In this document: positions 2,834 through 61,399 of the stretch, in pieces | Layout of the letters: the number at the start of each line of letters is the position of its first letter | Numbering within the stretch: the stretch's first letter is position 1 | Assembly (NCBI GenBank): GCA_030427835.1 | Contig: JAUICN010000006.1 | Coordinates: forward strand, 148,086 to 212,085 | Origin: Polyangia bacterium | Lineage (GTDB): Bacteria; Myxococcota_A; Polyangia; Polyangiales; JAUICN01 | DNA: 64,000 bases | Direction: 5' to 3' | Notes under the pieces: model-generated | What the model was told of the DNA's origin: nothing | Database searches by the model: none | Seen by the model: the letters and a program-made list of their open reading frames with translations, nothing else | Program-made: the position numbers and the translations under genes

Positions 2834-2959
2834 TTGGGGCTCCTCACCTAGATCCCCTAGCTTTGGGCGACAAGCCGCCATTTCGTGCGGAAATTCCCAG
2901 CTTTGTGGGGTGGTTGCCTCCTTGTAAGTATGGCCAGGCAGGGTATTCTTGGCCCGTCC

Positions 2960-5900
2960 ATGAGTCGTTCCACCCATGCCTTGCCCGCGCAAATTGGTCG
3001 TTACCAGATTGTGCGTCGGCTTGGGGCCGGGGGCATGGCGGAAGTATTCCTAGCCAAGTCCACGGGCGTTGAAGGCATTGAAAAAATACTCGTGGTCAAA
3101 CGGGTCCTTCCCAACTTTGCCCGCCGCACAAAGTTCATCACCATGTTCCTTGAGGAGGCCAAGATTGCCACACGCCTCAACCACCCCAACATCGTGCAGG
3201 TCTATGCCTTTGAACAGGTGGCGGACGAGTTTTTGCTTGCCATGGAGTTTGTGGACGGGCCCGACATTGGCAAGCTGGGTGCGGCGGCACGACGAAAAGG
3301 AACACGCATACCGTTTGGGACCTCCGCATTCATTGCTCACGAAGTTGCCAAGGGGCTCGACTACGCCCATCGCCGCAAGGACGAGCGTCACGATCCCATG
3401 GACATCGTGCATCGAGACATCAGTCCCCAGAATATTCTCCTGAGTTATGAGGGCTCGGTAAAGATCGCAGACTTCGGTATCGCGAAAGCCAGAAAAGTCT
3501 CCGAGGAGAGCGGTGTCATCAAGGGCAAGTTTGGCTACATGGCTCCGGAGCAAGCACGTGGGCAAGCCGTAGACCAGAGATCCGACATCTACTCCCTGGG
3601 CATTCTGCTGGCCGAGATGTTGATGGGCCGCAACATGTTTCCCGGGCGACAAGGTGTTGAAGTACTCGAGGACGTACGTCGCGGTAACATCACACCGCCC
3701 AGCCAAGTCGACGCTACCATTCCCACTTCCCTGTGTAACATCGTAGAAAAGGCGACCCACTACCTACCTGAGAATCGCTACCAAACTGCGCGGGAGCTTG
3801 CAGCGGATCTTCATCGCTACCTCCGGAGCTTGGAAGACGTGCACGATGGCGAAAGCCTGGAGCAGTTCATCGCAGAAGTCCTCCCTAGGGACCTCACCCA
3901 CCCCGATGAACTCAACAGCGGCATTCAAGTCGATGGAGAAGGCGCCAGCGCCACCGTTGACTCATCCCTTTCCCATCCCGATCAGGAAGTGAGAGAGCGA
4001 AGGCATGTGGTCATCGTTTCAGGCAGAGTTATTCAACGGAACGCCGAAGACATCTCCGGCTTTGAGGTAGGTCCAAAGTTTGCCACGTTGCTTGCGGACC
4101 TCGCCTACAAAAATGACGCGGTTCTCTCTTGGGAAGACGGGGATGTTCGCCGCAGGTTCCGTTTTATTGTCGGTCTGCGTCGAGCCTCGGTCCACGATCC
4201 CTTAACTGCCATGAGGCTGTCCCTAGACGTTCATGAGGCAGTCGCAGGTTTCGTACCGGACGGAAACAACCCGATACAGATTGCTCTTGGAGTGACACGG
4301 GGTGTGGTCGCTACCGTGCGTGACAGCAACGGCATTTTACTGGACTACGATCCCAAATCAAAAGCCTTCCAGCTGGCCCACAAGCTGGCAGACTTGGCAG
4401 TAAACAACGAAACCCGAGTCACCTCAGAAATATATCGGCTCACCCGAAGGGACTTTCTGTTTCACGCGACGCCACCGGATTCGAAGGTACAAGCGTCTGC
4501 CGGTAGCGAACAGCACCTTTCTGCCAGCGTGGGCCCAGTTCCCCAGGCAGAGGCGGTAGAACAAGTCAGTTTCAAGTTGGAGGGGATACGAAGCCATGCG
4601 TCACGGGCAGCGGAACTCGTGGATCACCAGGAAAACATCGTGGGTAGGCAGGAGGAACGCCGGCTGCTTGGGGAGATGTTCCAGGAAGCCATCGCCTCCT
4701 CAAGAAGCATAGGGCTTGTGGTCACCGGTGAAGTTGGCGTTGGAAAAACCTACCTTACTGCCGCAGCCATTGCCGAGTTCGTACCCAAACCACATATGGT
4801 GCACACGGAATGCGCGTTTGGCACTTCCGACGCTCCCCTGTCCACGGCCCGTCAGATCTTGCGGCAAACGCTTGGGTTGACCGAACAGGACAGCCCCGAA
4901 ATTGCGCGAGAACGCCTTCAAAGGCAGCTCAAGCGGCATCAAATACCCGGAGCAGACCACCACCTTCTTGAAGCGCTAGTGCATGGAAGCCATGGCGGGA
5001 TCTCTCAACAGCCCGGCGGTACCAATCGAATCCCCCTATTGGCGCAGGCTGTTGCCACCTTTCTTGAAGCCATAGCCAACACCCAACCCCATGTGCTTTG
5101 GGTCGATTCTTCCCAGTGGATCGATTCTCCAAGTCTTGAGCTATTTGCGTCCGTACTTCGATCTCAGGTGCAGGCTCCATTGCTTGTTCTGTTCTGTGCA
5201 CGGCCTGATACTCGCATCGAGCGAGCCCTTTCCGCGGTGCCCCACATTGAGCTTGATGAATTGGAAGAATCCCACAGCCACGAACTGGTGCGTCGGCGTT
5301 TTCCCAACGCTCAGATCACGCCCTCGGTTCTCAGATTGGTTACCGATAGGGCCGGTGGGAACCCATTGTTCATTGCCGAGTTACTTGAAACGCTTTTGGA
5401 GCGTGGTGTGGTCAAAGTTCTCGTTGACAGGGATGGCCATTCCCAGATTGTACGATCGTCCGTTTCGGCGCTCGCACTTCCAGCCACATTGGAAGGGGTG
5501 GTGGCCTCCAGGCTCGATGAGCTACCAGAGATCGAACGCCGCATGTTGCGGTGGATTGCCGTTCTTGGGTCTGGGTTTTCCAGTGACGACCTTCGTGAGA
5601 TCACGGGGCAGGATCCAGGTACTGAACTCGACAATCTCGAAAAACGCAATCTTCTGATCGCTTCCGTTGAAGGTCGTTTTCGGTTTCCAAGCACGGTGCT
5701 TCGCCAGGTTGTTTACGAAACCACAGACGAAGAAGACCGAACAAAAATGCATCGACGTGTGGGTCGGTGGATGTCCAACTCCTTTCGCCCGTTTGCACCT
5801 GCGCGGGTGGCGCGCCATCTAGAAAAAGCCAAGGAATACGATTCGGCCGCAGACGCTTACCTACGCGCGGCCACGTCCGCACGTGCCACCTACGCCAATC

Positions 5901-30944: not shown

Positions 30945-31715
30945 GTGTGTCGACCAGTTGACAGGAGGCACCGTCAGGGCTTCAATTCACGCGTGTCCCC
31001 CCAATTTGTGACCGTCGCCCCGTCGGTCCTGGCCGCGAATTTCGCCGATCTCGCATCCGAAGTTCAAGCTGTACAAAATGCCGGAGCAGACTGGATCCAT
31101 GTGGATGTCATGGACGGCCACTTCGTGCCCAACATCACCATCGGTCCACCGGTGGTGAAAGCGTTGCGTGCAAGCACCACCCTACCGTTGGACGTGCATC
31201 TCATGATCGAGAGGCCGGAACGTTATCTGCTGGATTTCGCCAAAGCGGGGGCCGATACCATTACGGTTCATGCGGAGGCCTGCACCCACCTGCACCGCAC
31301 CCTACAGGAAACGCGGGCCACCGGCGCCAAGGTCGGGGTGGCCCTCAATCCCCACACCCCCGTAGATGCCTTATTGCATGTGCTCCATTTGGTGGATTTG
31401 GTGCTGCTCATGACTGTGAACCCTGGTTTTGGAGGGCAGAGTTTCTTGCCAGAGGTTCTTCCAAAAATAGGCAAAGTTCGCGAAAGGGTCGATGCCCTCG
31501 GTCGCGACATTCGAATCGAAGTGGACGGGGGCATCACTAAGAACACCGCCGCCGACGTGGCCGGGGCGGGTGCGGACACGCTGGTCGCCGGCAGCGCGGT
31601 ATTCGGCGCCCCGGACTATGCCCAGGCGATCAAGGGCATTCGGCAGGCGGCAGAGGCACAGTTGAACATGGGTGTTGGGGAATACCGAGCCACCACCGAA
31701 AAGGAAGTACCGTGA
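30945..31715 (+). CDS. rpe: Ribulose-phosphate 3-epimerase
   Basis: VAPSVLAANFADL, WIHVDVMDGHFVPNITIGP, MTVNPGFGGQSF, EVDGGI. A GTG at 30993 is an alternative start. Confidence 0.95.
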   Translation: MCRPVDRRHRQGFNSRVSPQFVTVAPSVLAANFADLASEVQAVQNAGADWIHVDVMDGHFVPNITIGPPVVKALRASTTLPLDVHLMIERPERYLLDFAKAGADTITVHAEACTHLHRTLQETRATGAKVGVALNPHTPVDALLHVLHLVDLVLLMTVNPGFGGQSFLPEVLPKIGKVRERVDALGRDIRIEVDGGITKNTAADVAGAGADTLVAGSAVFGAPDYAQAIKGIRQAAEAQLNMGVGEYRATTEKEVP

Positions 31716-33094
31716 CCGAGCAAGCAGCCCTTACCACCGTTTTCGAAGACAAAAGGCCCAGTCGTCGTGTGCTTAAACGCAGCAAACTTGTGGTTGTGGA
31801 CGGGCCCGACGCCGGCTCCGAGTGCGTAATCGAGAAAGAACGGATCACGATTGGGCGAAGCGTCATCTGTGATCTGGTTCTTGAGGACAAGGCCGTGAGC
31901 GGCACTCACGTGGAAATCGTGGCTACCGAAAAGGGCATGTTGCTTCGGGATCTGGATTCCACCAATGGATGCTACCTCGGATCAAGCCGCATCAAGGAAG
32001 TGTGGATGATGCCTGGAACCAACATTCGTGTGGGCCAAAGCGTGCTCCGGTTTGAGCTTGCAACAGGCAACGTGGAGTTTGACCTAAGTAAGGAAGATAG
32101 GTTCGACAAACTCATCGGCCGAAGCGTGCGCATGCGCGAAATTTTTGCGGCCTTGCAGAAGATCGCAACCACCGATCTTACCGTGTTGATTCGAGGAGAA
32201 ACCGGTACAGGCAAGGAGCTGGTGGCCCGGGCACTGCACATGCATTCCAAACGCTCCAGCCATCCACTTGTGGTGCAGGACTGCAGTGCCATTCCCAAGG
32301 ACCTCGTGGAAAGCACGCTGTTTGGCCATGAGAAGGGGGCCTTTACGGGTGCCAACGATCGTTTTCGTGGTTCTTTTGAGCAGGCGGATGGCGGCACCAT
32401 ATTTCTTGATGAGATCGGTGAACTGGATCTCGCGCTCCAGCCCAAGTTGTTGCGGGTGCTCGAAAATAGGGAAATCAAGCGCGTGGGTGGAGATCGAACC
32501 GTCTCCGTAAACGTGCGAGTGGTGGCCGCCACAAACCGCGATCTTCGGCAGATGGTGAATGATGGCACCTTCCGAGAGGATCTCTACTATCGCCTGAGTG
32601 TGGCCCAGGTGGAGTTGCCAGCCCTGCGAGAGCGCCCGGAAGATGTGGAGCTTCTCGTACAAAACTTCCTTGAAGATTTTTGCCGAAGGAACCCCACCGA
32701 ACGCTCTGAAAACCAGTTCTCCATTGCCCCGGACGCCATGGACAGGCTCAAGTCCTATCCCTGGCCCGGCAACGTACGGGAACTCAAAAATACGATTGAA
32801 CGGGCAGCATCCCTTGCGGATCATACGGAACTCACCGTCCGGGACCTGATGCCGGCTTCCCAGAAAACACCCGCGGTATCCATGCCCGGTGGAACTTCCG
32901 CCGAACAGTTTGTGGAAGAAAACGTTCCCTTCAAGGAAGCAAAACAACGCATCGTGGATAGTTTTGAGGCGTCCTACCTAAAAGCACTTGTGGACAAGCA
33001 CGCGGGCAACATTACCCGCAGCGCCCAGGCCGCAGGGCTCACGCGTTACCACCTGCGAGAACTGACAAAGCGCTACAGCGTCCGCGGCGACTAG
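31712..33094 (+). CDS. FHA-domain sigma54-dependent transcriptional activator
   Basis: N-terminal FHA (TIGRSVICDLVLEDKAVSGTHVEIV...DSTNGCYL); AAA+ GETGTGKE, GAFTGA, Fis-type HTH; no receiver domain. GTGA overlap with rpe. Confidence 0.95.
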   Translation: MTEQAALTTVFEDKRPSRRVLKRSKLVVVDGPDAGSECVIEKERITIGRSVICDLVLEDKAVSGTHVEIVATEKGMLLRDLDSTNGCYLGSSRIKEVWMMPGTNIRVGQSVLRFELATGNVEFDLSKEDRFDKLIGRSVRMREIFAALQKIATTDLTVLIRGETGTGKELVARALHMHSKRSSHPLVVQDCSAIPKDLVESTLFGHEKGAFTGANDRFRGSFEQADGGTIFLDEIGELDLALQPKLLRVLENREIKRVGGDRTVSVNVRVVAATNRDLRQMVNDGTFREDLYYRLSVAQVELPALRERPEDVELLVQNFLEDFCRRNPTERSENQFSIAPDAMDRLKSYPWPGNVRELKNTIERAASLADHTELTVRDLMPASQKTPAVSMPGGTSAEQFVEENVPFKEAKQRIVDSFEASYLKALVDKHAGNITRSAQAAGLTRYHLRELTKRYSVRGD

Positions 33095-42658: not shown

Positions 42659-43774
42659 CTATTGAAACAATCCGTCTCGAACTAGCTCCATCACATATCC
42701 GGATACTTCCGTTTCGGACTCTTGCCCCGGTTGGTAAATCCAAGTCCAGTGATTGAAATGAACCTTTTGAGCATGGGTGAAACCATGGTCCCCTTCCGCC
42801 GTTTCTATCACCGAAAAGACCGCGGTCAGTCGACTCCCATCTTCCAGTGCCTGCCCGATTTGAACGTAGCCCTGAGGGCTGTAGAGGTCACCCTCAGATG
42901 CCTTAGCTTGTTGCACAGCCAACGTCGTGGTTGGAACAGCAGACTGCGTGATCGGCATTTGAAATCCGACCGAGCTGGCGAAAAAACGTGTGGTTGCGCT
43001 ATCTAGAAACACAAGGGTATCCGTGCTCCAGTTCCTAAACTTCAGGGGAGATAGGTTGGGAGTTTCACCAAGGGTAGTAATCTTTCTTTTTTCGATCCCT
43101 GAAATCTCGACCGGGTCCGTATGAGCTTGTGCCAGTTCTAGAACCTCGCAGGTTAGAATCTCCCGTGAATCGGGGTTGCCGTACTCGATAAGAGGAGCTC
43201 GGTTCCCGTCCACGACCCAGCTTGCATCTTTAACATCAAACGTGGCCCAGGTCCGGAACGTTGGTTTGAGCACATCGTTCCGAGTGGGGAGATCGCCTTC
43301 AACTCCTGCCAGCGACAACTCAAGTAGTGCACCCTCCTCTGAAATAGAAATCGACATCGTGTGTCGTGCCTTCCAGTTTGGATAGTCCTTCATGTGGGTG
43401 ATCTTCTCGGCGTTGTCCAAGGTGACAAACGAGCCTTCGGAAGTTGGGTCCTTCCAGTAGGTTCTCATGGTGGTGAATGTGAATCCTGCGGTTGTGTCAA
43501 CACTACCCACCACTCCGTTCCGAATCATTTCAACGGCTAGATTCTGGGCGACCGCATCGGCCCCAAAACCACTATGACTCTGAAGTGCTTCAGCAAACAT
43601 CTGTGCCAAATTGGAACCACACACATTGAAAGTGTGAGAAGAGGTTGCCCCGCCCTCGACCGATTCAATCGATTTGGAAGATTCAGGAGTCGTTGGGGCC
43701 GCACATCCTGTCGCAGCTGCCAGGCAAAGACCTAAGAAACTCAAAATAATGGTTGGCGTGGGAACTTGGTACAT
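42659..43774 (-). CDS. Uncharacterised lipoprotein, paralog of 44211..45350
   Basis: MYQVPTPTIILSFLGLCLAAATGCAAP lipobox; FNVCGSNLAQMFAEALQSHSGFGADAVAQNLAVEMIRNGVVGSVDT resembles the neighbour. Confidence 0.7.
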   Translation of the reverse strand: MYQVPTPTIILSFLGLCLAAATGCAAPTTPESSKSIESVEGGATSSHTFNVCGSNLAQMFAEALQSHSGFGADAVAQNLAVEMIRNGVVGSVDTTAGFTFTTMRTYWKDPTSEGSFVTLDNAEKITHMKDYPNWKARHTMSISISEEGALLELSLAGVEGDLPTRNDVLKPTFRTWATFDVKDASWVVDGNRAPLIEYGNPDSREILTCEVLELAQAHTDPVEISGIEKRKITTLGETPNLSPLKFRNWSTDTLVFLDSATTRFFASSVGFQMPITQSAVPTTTLAVQQAKASEGDLYSPQGYVQIGQALEDGSRLTAVFSVIETAEGDHGFTHAQKVHFNHWTWIYQPGQESETEVSGYVMELVRDGLFQ

Positions 43775-44210: not shown

Positions 44211-45350
44211 TCAGTGAAGCCAGCCGGCGTCGATGGTCCGGACTACGGTGTCTCCCAGGCAACGCCCGGATCCCAGCGTTGAGGTGTCACACCACATCCA
44301 TTCCAGGAGCCTCGCGGACTGCAGTAGGAGGAGCCCGTTTTCCGGTTCGTCGAACCTGAACTCGTACTCCGCGCGAAGGATGCTGCCGTCATCCAGCCAC
44401 CAGTGCATGCTTGCCTTGTCCGCGGCACCCGTTTCGTTGTGGGGTACACCAATGTTCGTCTTCACCTCATCGGGAACCGCCTCGATACCCAGGCCCCGGG
44501 CAAGCTGCACCCGGTCGGCTTCTTTCAATACATCCTGTTTACCGACTGCCGCTGAGAAATACGTCAGCGCCTTTCCACCCGGTTGCCCGGAGATCTCCTT
44601 GGACAATGTCTCTGCAATCACGGGCACACCGTGTAGCGCGCTTGCCCGAACCAAATCGCAATCAATTTTTCGTAGGTCGCCGGAAATTCTGTACCTCACG
44701 CCCGCATCCACCCTGGGAACCCACCGTGCCACATCCGTATTGAACGCGACCCAGCTTTCGTAGCCGAGCTCGAGGTCAAGCGCTGCCGATGATCCTGTGT
44801 CTGACGACCGCGCAACGTCCAGGGACAACATGACACCAACGGGGCTTCGGATAATCGACAGCACGTAGTCAGCGATCAGCGCTGCTGCGTTGTCGATTGC
44901 TCCAGTGCGACGTACCCGGCCAAGGGGTTTTTGATCCCATTGTGCCCTCGCCGCGTTCTCCAAAACATGTTCTGCCCCACCGTCTTCGTCTGCGGTCGCC
45001 TCTAGCCATCGCACCGCCAACAACGGCATGATCGGTGTCTTCTGTGGATGATTTGTGTCCAGCAGTCCAATGTACCCATCGTCCAATAACCGTTGACCGA
45101 GGGCCATGGCCACGTTTTCCAACCGGAACGGCCCTTCGCCCATGGCGTCCGCCGTACTCTCAACTTCGATGGCATCGATCAGCCTCGCCTCAACGTTTGC
45201 CTCACATACACGGAACATATGTTGGAGGTTTTCGGGTGCCTCCGACCCTAGCTTCACTCCCGGCGAAGCATCACTGGGCGCTCCACAACCAATACCTATC
45301 TGACTCCACAGGAAAAAAAGAAAGAAGGGTCGAGTGTGTTGAATGACCAT
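44211..45350 (-). CDS. Uncharacterised lipoprotein, paralog of 42659..43774
   Basis: MVIQHTRPFFLFFLWSQIGIGCGAPSD lipobox; HMFRVCEANVEARLIDAIEVESTADAMGEGPFRLENVAMALGQRLLDDGYIGLLDT. Confidence 0.72.
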   Translation of the reverse strand: MVIQHTRPFFLFFLWSQIGIGCGAPSDASPGVKLGSEAPENLQHMFRVCEANVEARLIDAIEVESTADAMGEGPFRLENVAMALGQRLLDDGYIGLLDTNHPQKTPIMPLLAVRWLEATADEDGGAEHVLENAARAQWDQKPLGRVRRTGAIDNAAALIADYVLSIIRSPVGVMLSLDVARSSDTGSSAALDLELGYESWVAFNTDVARWVPRVDAGVRYRISGDLRKIDCDLVRASALHGVPVIAETLSKEISGQPGGKALTYFSAAVGKQDVLKEADRVQLARGLGIEAVPDEVKTNIGVPHNETGAADKASMHWWLDDGSILRAEYEFRFDEPENGLLLLQSARLLEWMWCDTSTLGSGRCLGDTVVRTIDAGWLH

Positions 45351-45362
45351 GGCCTGTAGCGC

Positions 45363-45379
45363 AGCAATATCCGTACCGT
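45363..45379 (-). promoter_or_regulatory. Candidate sigma54 -24/-12 motif for lipoprotein 44211..45350
   Basis: Minus strand ACGGTACGGATATTGCT; GG-N10-GC; 14 nt from -12 C to ATG. Confidence 0.3.
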
Positions 45380-50853: not shown

Positions 50854-50870
50854 TGGGCACGGCGCTTGCA
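50854..50870 (+). promoter_or_regulatory. Candidate sigma54 -24/-12 promoter for lipoprotein 50883..51779
   Basis: TGGGCACGGCGCTTGCA, one mismatch to TGGCACG-N4-TTGCA; GG-N10-GC. Confidence 0.45.
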
Positions 50871-50882
50871 TTTGCCCCTCGC

Positions 50883-51779
50883 ATGTTGTTTTCCCCCAAA
50901 TCCAAGCTCCCCCTATTCCCCGTGCTGTTCCTATGTGCGTCCCTATGTGGGTTCCTGTGTGCCTGCTCCGCGTTCGTTGACCTGAGTGGAACGCCCAAAC
51001 GTGCTGAAACGGAAGACGAGCAAGTGATTGATCCCCAATGCACCATCCACAGCGATTGCGGCGAGGATGAGGCCAACTCCTGCATTCGAGGTGTCTGCGT
51101 AGCCAACGAAAGCCCCATAGGCGTTCGAGTCCGTGAGGTCACATTTGAGGGAGGCAACCACGAACACTGTTCCACTGAGTTTGATGTTGCTGGGCATCAA
51201 GAATACCTGGAACTCTATTACCGTTTGGGAATGGTTCGGCCCGACGATAGCTCGTTTGTGTATTCCGAATTCGAAGCGAGTCAGGTGCCGTACAGGTACG
51301 GCTACTATTGTCAAAAAGAGAACAGCTCCGGTAACTCTCACGTATTTTCTGCGAAAGGCGACAACATGGGCCTCATCCTGCCCATGGGCGAACTCCTTCG
51401 GCGGCAAGCCTACATTCGTGTCCCAGCCCGTGTCTGTCACCTTAGACCTGAAACCCGGCGGAATATACTAAGCCGCAGTCACGAATGCTACGCCAACGAT
51501 GGCCTGCGCCTTACCCAAATCTCGGCATTCTTCCGCACCGGTAGCCCCACGGAGTTTCCCGAGGAGTCGCAGGAAGCGAGCGTTATCGAAAACAAAACAA
51601 TTGCCGTTCCCCTCCGGAAATCCATTGAACTAGAGGCAAGCGCTGTGAGTTGTCACGCAACAGCCCACGTCGAACTATTCACACCGACCGTTGAAGAGAA
51701 CCATGGTGTGGAGATTCCAGGCACATCGCTGGTCGGCTATCGGCCAGTGCCTCCTAGGTCGAGTACCTCAACCGAGTAG
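50883..51779 (+). CDS. Uncharacterised lipoprotein
   Basis: MLFSPKSKLPLFPVLFLCASLCGFLCACSAF; IDPQCTIHSDCGEDEANSCIRGVCVANES. Start moved from 50853 to 50883 because a sigma54-like motif overlaps the first codons. Confidence 0.65.
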   Translation: MLFSPKSKLPLFPVLFLCASLCGFLCACSAFVDLSGTPKRAETEDEQVIDPQCTIHSDCGEDEANSCIRGVCVANESPIGVRVREVTFEGGNHEHCSTEFDVAGHQEYLELYYRLGMVRPDDSSFVYSEFEASQVPYRYGYYCQKENSSGNSHVFSAKGDNMGLILPMGELLRRQAYIRVPARVCHLRPETRRNILSRSHECYANDGLRLTQISAFFRTGSPTEFPEESQEASVIENKTIAVPLRKSIELEASAVSCHATAHVELFTPTVEENHGVEIPGTSLVGYRPVPPRSSTSTE

Positions 51780-58577: not shown

Positions 58578-59618
58578 GTGAACCCTTTGTATTCTTGGAT
58601 CTCTACACTCCTGGCGCTCGCCTGCGCCTGTACCACCACCGCTTGCACTGCCACCGCGTTCCCCAGCCCCAATGCGAAGGATTCCGAGTTCGGGGATGAC
58701 CAAGCGCTCCTTGACGCCAACCCAGGTGACTCTGGTGACATCAGCACCCTGGCCGGCACTTACACCCTCGTGGCCGAGATTCAGACAAAGGGCAGCGGCA
58801 CCACACAACCCACAAAATTTTACGGCCTAGTCACCATCGACAAGCAGGGCCAAATGAAGCTCCAGGGCTGCAGCATAGCCTTCGCGAAGATCGAGAACAA
58901 AACCGTAGGTACCGTGTCAGTCAAGATTGAACCCGCTTCCCTTTGGGCGAGCCCCCCTACCTCAGGCAGGCTCGTCGTTGTCCAACCAGAAAATCCTCAG
59001 GATAGTTTACAAAGTGATTCTATCGAAGCGGGAAAAATCGCGCCTGTGTCCAACGAAAGCTCCCAGCAGGCGGACACTGCGGTAGACACTTTGCCGCCTT
59101 ACGTCGCCATGGATCGTGCGCGCAGCCTTTCCATTGCCTGGCCGGAGTACAAGGATCACAGCGCGGACTACGACTTTGACAACAGAAACGGTGTCCGGTT
59201 GTCGGTCAGCAGCGACGGAAGTGGCCTACAGGACGTGGCAGGTGCCTTCGGGATCGGCGATCTCAAGGTGTCCATTCAGATCCAGTTCAAGATCCACGTA
59301 TCCGCGTCCAGGGACAACCAAGGAATCATCCAGCTTACCGGGGATCCTGAAACCTCCACAATGTCCGCGGAGGCCGAAATATACGGAACGTACGCCTACA
59401 AACCCACCGGGACACTTCAAGACGAGGTAAAGTCGTTCGTCAAGAAGATCAACAGTTTCAAGTCCATCCAGCTTTCTTTCGTGAGCAAAACCATGCCGAA
59501 CCTCGGTGCTTTCGGCGTACCCGTTGCCTCAGACAGTGAGGCTGCATGGGGAGCGAAAATCCGAGCCAACCAGGGCCAAGCAAGAGCGCTCTGCCAACAG
59601 TACCGCATGGTGCAGTAG
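58578..59618 (+). CDS. Uncharacterised lipoprotein, trio member 1
   Basis: GTG start; LLALACACTTTACTATA; LAGTYTLVAEIQTKGSGTTQPTKFYGLVTIDKQGQMKLQGCSIAF. Confidence 0.75.
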   Translation: MNPLYSWISTLLALACACTTTACTATAFPSPNAKDSEFGDDQALLDANPGDSGDISTLAGTYTLVAEIQTKGSGTTQPTKFYGLVTIDKQGQMKLQGCSIAFAKIENKTVGTVSVKIEPASLWASPPTSGRLVVVQPENPQDSLQSDSIEAGKIAPVSNESSQQADTAVDTLPPYVAMDRARSLSIAWPEYKDHSADYDFDNRNGVRLSVSSDGSGLQDVAGAFGIGDLKVSIQIQFKIHVSASRDNQGIIQLTGDPETSTMSAEAEIYGTYAYKPTGTLQDEVKSFVKKINSFKSIQLSFVSKTMPNLGAFGVPVASDSEAAWGAKIRANQGQARALCQQYRMVQ

Positions 59619-59682
59619 CCACTCACCTTTTTTAAACTAGCCATATTGCTGGAAAAAACGCCACAAGTGGCCGTATTTGACA

Positions 59683-59699
59683 TTGGAACGGGACTTGCT
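59683..59699 (+). promoter_or_regulatory. Candidate sigma54 -24/-12 promoter for lipoprotein pair 59732..61399
   Basis: TTGGAACGGGACTTGCT vs YTGGCACGRN3TTGCW; GG-N10-GC; 34 nt upstream of ATG. Confidence 0.5.
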
Positions 59700-59731
59700 T
59701 CATTTTATATTCACTTTTAAGAGGTGTCTAA

Positions 59732-60538
59732 ATGAACAGTTCCCCCCTTGTTATCTTCCCATCGGTCTTTGCTCTGGCCGCGTGCGCCATCGCCGCCTGC
59801 GCCATCGACCCTGTGCAAAGTGCGCATGATCCCAAAAACGCTGAGTTCGAAGGGACGGTCGGCTCCCCGGATATCTCCATCTCAGATTTCAACGGCGCCT
59901 ACAAACTCACCGTAGAAATGCTCACGGAGGGCAGTGGCGCCACTGGGCCGACCGTATTCAACGCTGTGGCCACGATTCAGGAAGGGGTGCTGGAAATCTA
60001 TCCCTGTTCCATCCAGTTTTCCTCCATCACACACAACGGTGTGGGAACAGTCACCCCCTCCATTCCCAACGAACGCCTCCGTGCTCTTCCCGTGGTCTCA
60101 TCCAGTTTGGCGCTTCACTCCCATTCCGAAGAGCCTGGATCCCTAACCGGTTCCTACGTTTCGATGAACAAACCTGCCAAGTTGGTGATGGGCACTTCTA
60201 AACAGGACCCGTTCCAGATCGACTTTGAAAACTCTGGAAATGGGTTCCAGAATATTGTGGGTGCAGGAACCGTGGGTGCGCTGGCGGTTGCTGTGGAACT
60301 GAAGTTTCAAATCCACGCCAACATCAAAAATAACAAGCTGATTCCCGACATCAACCGTTCAACCATGTCCGCCACCGCGGACACCTTTAGCTGCAGTTGC
60401 TTTGTCGGCGGGCCGTTGCGATCTGCTTTTCAAAAGTTTGTCACCAACATCAAGTCCTACCACGCCATCAGTCTCGAACGTTTGGCCGATGTACCGGCTT
60501 CCAACGAAAACATCTGCGAGGATGTCGGGGTGGAGTAA
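59732..60538 (+). CDS. Uncharacterised lipoprotein, trio member 2
   Basis: FALAACAIAACAIDP; FNGAYKLTVEMLTEGSGATGPTVFNAVATIQEGVLEIYPCSIQF. Confidence 0.78.
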   Translation: MNSSPLVIFPSVFALAACAIAACAIDPVQSAHDPKNAEFEGTVGSPDISISDFNGAYKLTVEMLTEGSGATGPTVFNAVATIQEGVLEIYPCSIQFSSITHNGVGTVTPSIPNERLRALPVVSSSLALHSHSEEPGSLTGSYVSMNKPAKLVMGTSKQDPFQIDFENSGNGFQNIVGAGTVGALAVAVELKFQIHANIKNNKLIPDINRSTMSATADTFSCSCFVGGPLRSAFQKFVTNIKSYHAISLERLADVPASNENICEDVGVE

Positions 60539-60541
60539 CCC

Positions 60542-61399
60542 ATGAAATACCTCACTTTCACTCTTGCCATACCCTTGGTAGCTGCTTGCACGGCAATCAC
60601 CGTGGGTCCAGATACAACCGGAAAAAATAGCGACGTTGAGATTACGGCACAGGAACTACTCCCGTCGGGCTACACCCACCAACTCTTCATCCAAACCCGC
60701 CCGACCAAGCATAAAAAGAAGGGCGCACGATTGTTCTCGGTCGCAAGGTTTGTGGACGGTGGGCTTGAAGTTCTTCCCTGTAACATCACCCTCGCTAAGA
60801 CGACGTTTCCATTGGCCTCAGTGGATGCTGTCATTTCTGCAGAAGATACCCTGACCGCATCCGTCCCCACGGTTGTACCGCTCACAGACAATACAGAAAC
60901 GTCCCTAGTCACCGCGCGCACTGATTGGTGGTTGGGGGATCACCAGGGCACCGCTAAAACAACAGAAGGCCCTGCGGGAACACTTGACTGCAGCAATACA
61001 AAGGTAAAACGCATCGACCTTTCGCTAGATGGTACAGGGTGGCTCTTTTGGATTTCTAGCCAACTAGAATATGTCTTCGCGCTCAACATGGAGTTGAATC
61101 TCACGCGATCTAGTGTTGGCGAAAAATGGGAATACAAAAGACAGTTAGAAGAAAACGCCACGGATACAGAGGCTGACTACCTGAAGATTACTCCGTTCGT
61201 CTGCAAAGAAGATACGGACAAGGTGCATCCCGGTGTAAAAAATGAGTTGCCCAAGGTAAACACCATTTACGCGGCATACATGGAAGCGGTATCCAACGCA
61301 TCTTGCGCCAGGGTTCAAGACTGGTCCCAAACCATGATTAAGGACGCCTACCCCCAGGATGGGCAAGTGCCCCTGCCTTGGAATAAGCCCATCGAGTAG
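60542..61399 (+). CDS. Uncharacterised lipoprotein, trio member 3
   Basis: LTFTLAIPLVAACTAI lipobox; SGYTHQLFIQTRPTKHKKKGARLFSVARFVDGGLEVLPCNITLAK; 3-nt gap from member 2. Confidence 0.75.
   Translation: MKYLTFTLAIPLVAACTAITVGPDTTGKNSDVEITAQELLPSGYTHQLFIQTRPTKHKKKGARLFSVARFVDGGLEVLPCNITLAKTTFPLASVDAVISAEDTLTASVPTVVPLTDNTETSLVTARTDWWLGDHQGTAKTTEGPAGTLDCSNTKVKRIDLSLDGTGWLFWISSQLEYVFALNMELNLTRSSVGEKWEYKRQLEENATDTEADYLKITPFVCKEDTDKVHPGVKNELPKVNTIYAAYMEAVSNASCARVQDWSQTMIKDAYPQDGQVPLPWNKPIE

What the first reader, a model, noticed from the sequence alone, without database searches (positions are those of the whole stretch)
58578..61399. Tandem trio of divergent paralogous lipoproteins: candidate undescribed family
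Three consecutive lipoproteins share a core: TYTLVAEIQTKGSGTTQPTKFYGLVTIDKQGQMKLQGCSIAFAKI / AYKLTVEMLTEGSGATGPTVFNAVATIQEGVLEIYPCSIQFSSI / GYTHQLFIQTRPTKHKKKGARLFSVARFVDGGLEVLPCNITLAKT. The first two also share GSGLQDVAGAFGIGDLKVSIQIQFKIHVS vs GNGFQNIVGAGTVGALAVAVELKFQIHAN and TMSAEAE / TMSATAD. Members 2 and 3 form an operon with a sigma54-like promoter, next to a diguanylate cyclase. No known family recognised.
Basis: partly seen in the sequence, partly recalled or inferred. Interest (0 to 1): 0.65.

Follow-up and report, generated by a model that had tools for sequence, protein, structure and literature searches.

The report
Sigma-54 lipoprotein arsenal in a myxobacterium
Three odd surface-protein genes turn out to be one small piece of a genome-wide set of at least 35 promoter-linked, mostly unrelated lipoproteins in an uncultured myxobacterium, switched on by the same kind of promoter that usually sits almost directly on the start codon.

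Summary
The three lipoprotein genes are real. P1 (58578-59618) and P2 (59732-60538) are clear paralogues (BLASTP 2e-21; shuffle z = 33). P3 (60542-61399) is not demonstrably homologous (26/3000 shuffles as good; hhalign probability 5%). No Pfam, NCBIfam or PDB sequence match and no relative in 318 genomes of the class. The sigma-54 promoter of P2-P3 holds up: 59684-59698 is the only exact match in 64 kb, and rpoN and 15 strong activator (EBP) genes are present.

Following that promoter gave the main result. Of 58 sigma-54 sites in this 3.3-Mb genome (class Polyangia, inferred), 35 stand directly before a lipoprotein gene; a spacer-shifted control gives 0/13. In 26 of 35 the start codon lies 10-16 nt after the -12 element, predicting mRNAs with almost no leader. 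The proteins fall into many unrelated families, often in tandem pairs like P1/P2. 30/35 carry a lysine 7-13 residues after the lipid cysteine, including all of P1-P3. A few resemble exoenzymes or effectors (matrixin-like and other HExxH proteins, GDSGG, ART, LRR).

The promoter-on-ATG arrangement recurs across the class, again mostly before lipoproteins, without the lysine tag. Best reading: a sigma-54-regulated, fast-diversifying surface or secreted lipoprotein arsenal. Its function is inferred, not shown.

The parts
58578..59618 (+). P1: lipoprotein, 346 aa, GTG start; tag C23-TATAFPSPNAK-DSEF; no good sigma-54 site upstream
59684..59698 (+). sigma-54 promoter TGGAACGGGACTTGC (-24/-12) of the P2-P3 unit; 32 nt from TTGCT to the ATG, with an AAGAGGTG Shine-Dalgarno
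   Evidence: exact match, only one in the window; PSSM 23.5 bits; rpoN in the genome
59732..60538 (+). P2: lipoprotein, 268 aa, paralogue of P1; tag C23-AIDPVQSAHDPK-NAEF
60542..61399 (+). P3: lipoprotein, 285 aa, 3 nt after P2 (same operon); tag C16-TAITVGPDTTGK-NSD; homology to P1/P2 not shown
50855..50869 (+). one-mismatch sigma-54 site GGGCACGGCGCTTGC, 12 nt before an ATG
50883..51779 (+). further regulon member: orphan lipoprotein (C-SAFVDLSGTPK-RAE), probable start at 50883 rather than 50853
45364..45378 (-). one-mismatch sigma-54 site CGGTACGGATATTGC, 12 nt before an ATG
44211..45350 (-). further regulon member: orphan lipoprotein (C-GAPSDASPGVK-LGS)
42659..43774 (-). probable further member: orphan lipoprotein (C-AAPTTPESSK-SIE) behind a weak sigma-54-like site at 43811-43797 (9.8 bits)

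Best explanation
P2-P3, and probably P1, belong to a large sigma-54-controlled set of lipoproteins in this uncultured myxobacterium. RNA polymerase with sigma-54, driven by one or more enhancer-binding proteins, transcribes at least 35 lipoprotein genes from -24/-12 promoters. In most of them the start codon lies at about +1 to +7, so the mRNA is leaderless or nearly so. P2 is a minority case with a leader of about 20 nt and a Shine-Dalgarno. The products share a Sec/lipoprotein signal peptide and, after the lipid cysteine, a short linker with a lysine at about +9 to +12, but otherwise belong to many unrelated, fast-diverging families multiplied by tandem duplication (P1/P2 is one such pair). 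Because several members carry exoenzyme- or effector-like domains, I infer that the set is a surface-displayed or released arsenal for dealing with prey, hosts or polymers, and that P1-P3 are binding or accessory members of it (P1/P2 beta-rich). Shown by sequence: promoters, spacing, lipoprotein enrichment, tag, tandem copies. Inferred: sigma-54 dependence, leaderless mRNA, surface location, role.
For: rpoN present; 15 strong sigma-54 activator domains. Site counts: 33 exact TGGNACG-N4-TTGC vs 13 reversed controls; 51 vs 11 for the second pattern. 35 of 58 distinct sites stand directly before a lipoprotein gene, against 0 of 13 for the spacer+2 control (Fisher p about 6e-5). Start codon 10-16 nt after TTGCW in 26 of 35, in a set chosen without any condition on the ATG. 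Pattern with a fixed ATG: 18 vs 0 control in this genome; 209 of 308 class genomes match, control near zero; spacing peaks at 12 nt; 23 of 45 checked genes are lipoproteins. Lysine at +7..+13 in 30/35 vs 34/67 other lipoprotein-like ORFs (p 5e-4), P1-P3 included. 62 proteins fall into 49 sequence clusters; related pairs are mostly neighbours. Domains: ART above cut-off, matrixin-like HEIGHSLGLYH, weak LRR and alpha/beta hydrolase; HExxH in 5/40 vs 0.67 expected.
Against: No expression data. P2's promoter is not of the near-leaderless type, P1 has no good sigma-54 site, and a sigma-70-like box overlaps P2's promoter at chance frequency. The control for the lysine tag is impure: it includes false ORFs and neighbours of regulon genes, and the tag is absent from most of the class relatives' lipoproteins. 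Domain hits are few and several are sub-threshold; most members, including P1-P3, have no function assigned. Two members are ordinary (beta-propeller, cupredoxin), and flgB, an ECF sigma gene and a membrane protein also have such promoters.
Confidence: 0.62

Rival explanations
1. An isolated, lineage-specific tandem duplication of periplasmic lipoproteins of unknown role, with the sigma-54 site a coincidence and no wider regulon relevant to the trio.
For: P1/P2 have no other relatives in the genome or class; P1 has no sigma-54 site; a sigma-70-like box overlaps the P2 site.
Against: The P2 site is the best of the window (23.5 bits) and is one of 35 such sites before lipoproteins; all three proteins carry the lysine tag typical of the set.
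Confidence: 0.15
2. All three are true paralogues of one undescribed beta-rich lipoprotein family, P3 having diverged beyond detection.
For: P1/P2 certain; P2-P3 similarity is borderline (BLASTP 8e-4; 26/3000 shuffles) and spans the same N-terminal strand region with a cysteine at the same place.
Against: hhalign probability 5%; no similarity over the C-terminal two thirds; P1-P3 not above chance; many unrelated tandem tagged lipoproteins exist in this genome.
Confidence: 0.3
3. A SitA-like set of contact-delivered polymorphic lipoprotein toxins for kin discrimination.
For: Lipoproteins with variable bodies in a myxobacterium; an ART-like member; a linker after the lipobox, as described for SitA (PMC8546572).
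Against: No shared escort domain; neighbours in tandem are further lipoproteins rather than small immunity-like genes; most members have no toxin-like domain.
Confidence: 0.1

Closest known systems
Sigma-54 control of the bacterial exterior (Francke et al. 2011, PMC3162934), including Borrelia RpoN/Rrp2 lipoprotein control
   Same: Sigma-54 and its activators linked to lipoproteins, flagella and surface components
   Different: Here at least 35 lipoprotein genes each carry their own -24/-12 promoter, mostly placed 10-16 nt before the ATG, and the products share an N-terminal tag
SitA lipoprotein toxins of Myxococcus xanthus (PMC5562445, PMC8546572)
   Same: Variable lipoproteins of a myxobacterium with a linker after the lipobox
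   Different: No conserved escort domain, no evident SitI-like partner, mostly unknown or exoenzyme-like bodies
MYXO-CTERM surface proteins (TIGR03901; myxosortase, PMC11980579)
   Same: Lipid-anchored surface proteins shared as a class by a sorting tag in Myxococcota
   Different: The tag is N-terminal and lysine-containing; P1-P3 end without a transmembrane helix or arginine-rich tail
Leaderless mRNAs (S. meliloti TSS map, PMC3616915; Deinococcus-Thermus, PMC12340547)
   Same: Promoter core element set next to the start codon
   Different: The promoter here is the sigma-54 -24/-12 type; no report of a sigma-54 set of this kind was found in the papers searched

Membership tests
Sigma-54 (RpoN) regulon | -24/-12 promoter with GG-N10-GC spacing | tested here: met
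   59684-59698 exact; 35 sites before lipoprotein genes; spacer-shifted control 0/13
Sigma-54 (RpoN) regulon | rpoN and enhancer-binding proteins in the genome | tested here: met
   PF04552 1.5e-65; 15 strong PF00158 domains
Sigma-54 (RpoN) regulon | upstream activator site | tested here: inconclusive
   Palindrome TGGGGT-N6-ACCCCA with at least 10/12 matches in 7 of 35 upstream regions vs 0.75 expected, but the motif was found in the same data; P2's own region has only a weak copy
Sigma-54 (RpoN) regulon | expression lost without sigma-54 | not testable with these tools
   needs a cultured relative
Bacterial lipoproteins | signal peptide with lipobox cysteine | tested here: met
   P1 C23 (or C16), P2 C23 (or C18), P3 C16 by sequence and a simple rule; P1 and P2 lack a K/R before the hydrophobic stretch
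SitA toxins | conserved escort domain of about 375 residues defining each family | tested here: not met
   49 sequence clusters among 62 proteins, no shared N-terminal domain beyond signal and tag; not compared with SitA sequences themselves
SitA toxins | cognate immunity gene in the same operon | tested here: inconclusive
   P2 is followed by P3, itself a lipoprotein; downstream genes elsewhere were often further lipoproteins; not tested by function
MYXO-CTERM proteins | C-terminal cysteine motif, transmembrane helix, arginine-rich tail | tested here: not met
   C-termini of P1-P3 read directly
Any Pfam or NCBIfam family | score above the curated cut-off | tested here: not met

The most novel reading that the evidence does not exclude
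The lysine 9-12 residues after the lipid cysteine marks cargo of an undescribed lipoprotein export or release pathway. Sigma-54, acting through promoters fused to the start codon, switches on a whole arsenal of such tagged, unrelated effector and exoenzyme lipoproteins at once.
Probability: 0.25. Interest if true: 0.85.

Novelty: new variant of a known kind. Interest (0 to 1): 0.6.

Why it matters
If right, three anonymous orphan genes point to a rule that finds dozens of unannotated surface or secreted proteins at once in an uncultured myxobacterium, from promoter and N-terminal tag alone. The class-wide promoter-on-ATG arrangement would make sigma-54 a driver of near-leaderless mRNAs, which can be tested directly by 5'-end mapping in culturable relatives. 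The tagged set offers a defined cargo list for asking how myxobacteria sort lipoproteins to the surface.

Tried and rejected
Pfam, NCBIfam and PDB sequence searches of P1-P3: nothing. Relatives of P1/P2 in 57 relatives, then 184 order and 318 class genomes, and a named-genome scan: only weak signal-peptide-type hits. AlphaFold of P2 with a two-row alignment gave pLDDT 56, pTM 0.60, beta-rich; Foldseek against PDB had no hit at E <= 0.001, best 0.03, so the lipocalin, LolB and LprG rows were not used. AlphaFold of P3 alone failed. Gibbs motif search upstream was not convincing apart from the palindrome. Literature searches for leaderless sigma-54 sets and sigma-54 lipoprotein regulons in myxobacteria found nothing directly on point. 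The own genome was not taken whole because the tool does not lay it out; only stretches round the sites were fetched.

Full report
What is there. Three + strand genes stand between a DivIC/FtsB-like gene and a GAF-GAF-GGDEF diguanylate cyclase: P1 58578-59618, P2 59732-60538, P3 60542-61399. All begin with lipoprotein-type signal peptides. P1 and P2 are paralogues beyond doubt (BLASTP 2e-21; shuffle z = 33). P3 is not demonstrably homologous: P2-P3 reaches 8e-4 only with the signal peptide included, 26/3000 shuffles match it without, and profile comparison gives 5% probability. Pfam, NCBIfam and PDB sequence searches find nothing.

Distribution. The host is a 3.3-Mb genome (98% complete) with no held relative in its genus or family. 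Its seryl-tRNA synthetase is closest (54-56%) to Myxococcales/Polyangiaceae MAGs. I therefore place the host in the myxobacterial class Polyangia, by inference. P1/P2 relatives are absent from 318 class genomes and from the named-genome scan.

The promoter. TGGAACGGGACTTGC at 59684-59698 is the only exact sigma-54 match in the window. The genome has rpoN and 15 strong activator domains. Exact sites number 33 against 13 for the reversed control, and 51 against 11 with a second pattern.

The regulon. I read the DNA behind every such site. Of 58 distinct sites, 35 stand directly before a lipoprotein gene of about 130-730 aa, P2 included. Most of the rest are inside genes or have no gene behind them, about the number expected by chance; the non-lipoprotein exceptions include flgB, an ECF sigma factor and a membrane protein. 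Sites with the spacer lengthened by two bases give 13 matches and no gene behind any. In the window, one-mismatch sites lead to two more orphan lipoproteins (50883-51779 and 44211-45350), each 12 nt before the ATG, and a weaker site to a third at 42659-43774.

Promoter on the start codon. In 26 of 35 cases the start codon lies 10-16 nt after TTGCW. Where an in-frame start lay closer than that, the next start was taken. With the usual transcription start about 12 nt after the -12 cytosine (established sigma-54 knowledge), these mRNAs would have 0-6 nt of leader. The signal peptide begins right at that ATG, so the start is credible. A pattern with the ATG fixed finds 18 places in this genome against 0 in the control, and matches 209 of 308 class genomes with controls near zero. 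In the class genomes the spacing peaks sharply at 12 nt, and 23 of 45 genes checked encode lipoproteins; others are ECF sigma factors, secreted proteins and one recA. P2 itself is one of the minority with a leader (32 nt, Shine-Dalgarno AAGAGGTG).

The tag. After the lipid cysteine most members have a short linker and a lysine, commonly followed by S, G, A or T, at about +9 to +12: 30 of 35, against 34 of 67 other lipoprotein-like ORFs, many of which are neighbours of regulon genes (p 5e-4). All three trio members have it (NAK-DSEF, DPK-NAEF, TGK-NSD). Most class relatives do not show it at this place, so it looks like a trait of this lineage. This is the only firm feature that joins P3 to P1.

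The bodies. Sixty-two tagged or sigma-54-linked lipoproteins fall into 49 sequence clusters; related ones are mostly immediate neighbours. Tandem duplication is thus the habit of the set, and P1/P2 is an example. Most have no family. Exceptions: an ADP-ribosyltransferase-like protein (L142, PF01129 2.4e-5, above cut-off), a matrixin-like metalloprotease (L159, HEIGHSLGLYH), weak LRR (L148, L153), weak alpha/beta hydrolase (L138), a GDSGG protein by eye (L127), a beta-propeller (L146) and a cupredoxin (L132). HExxH occurs in 5 of 40 proteins, against 0.67 in shuffles.

Mechanism. Shown by sequence: promoters, their spacing, lipoprotein enrichment, tag, tandem copies. Inferred: sigma-54 and one or more activators turn the set on together; a palindrome TGGGGT-N6-ACCCCA in some upstream regions may be one activator's site (found and tested in the same data). 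The products are lipid-anchored and probably displayed at or released from the surface, where the enzyme-like members act on prey, host or polymer. P1/P2, beta-rich in a low-confidence model (no PDB match), would be binding or accessory members. The lysine may be a sorting or release signal; that is speculation.

Known background. Sigma-54 is described as a controller of the bacterial exterior, lipoproteins included (PMC3162934). SitA toxins are variable myxobacterial lipoproteins with escort domains and immunity partners (PMC8546572), features not found here. MYXO-CTERM tags are C-terminal (PMC11980579) and absent here. I found no report of a near-leaderless sigma-54 lipoprotein set in the papers searched; subscription literature was not searched.

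Verdict. Its sigma-54 hunch was right and leads to a regulon of wider interest.

Noticed in passing
window 31712-33094 (+): A sigma-54 activator (PF00158, 2.9e-71) lies in the same window about 27 kb from the trio; it could be one of the activators of the set.
   Followed up: no
L142 (G000:C6:18309-22809), gene 2849-3973 -: A sigma-54-linked tagged lipoprotein with an ADP-ribosyltransferase-like domain above the Pfam cut-off.
   Followed up: partly
L140, L147, L144, L152, L128: Tandem pairs or triplets of tagged paralogous lipoproteins, the same layout as P1/P2.
   Followed up: partly
G221 (L195-L203): 41 matches to the sigma-54-plus-ATG pattern; those read are near-identical sites followed by ATG and a four-codon ORF (MTEP/MTGP), which looks like a dispersed repeat that carries a sigma-54-like motif.
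   Followed up: no
L209 (G240:C9:341576-343776): A recA-like gene whose ATG lies 12 nt behind a sigma-54 site in another genome of the class.
   Followed up: no
L207, L210, L214, L170, L041: ECF-type sigma factor genes behind sigma-54 sites in several genomes, mostly with the ATG 12-13 nt away, suggesting sigma cascades.
   Followed up: no
L072 (G000:C8, site 89274) and L101: A flgB-like gene with a sigma-54 site 12 nt before its ATG, just downstream of an activator gene, in a myxobacterial genome.
   Followed up: no
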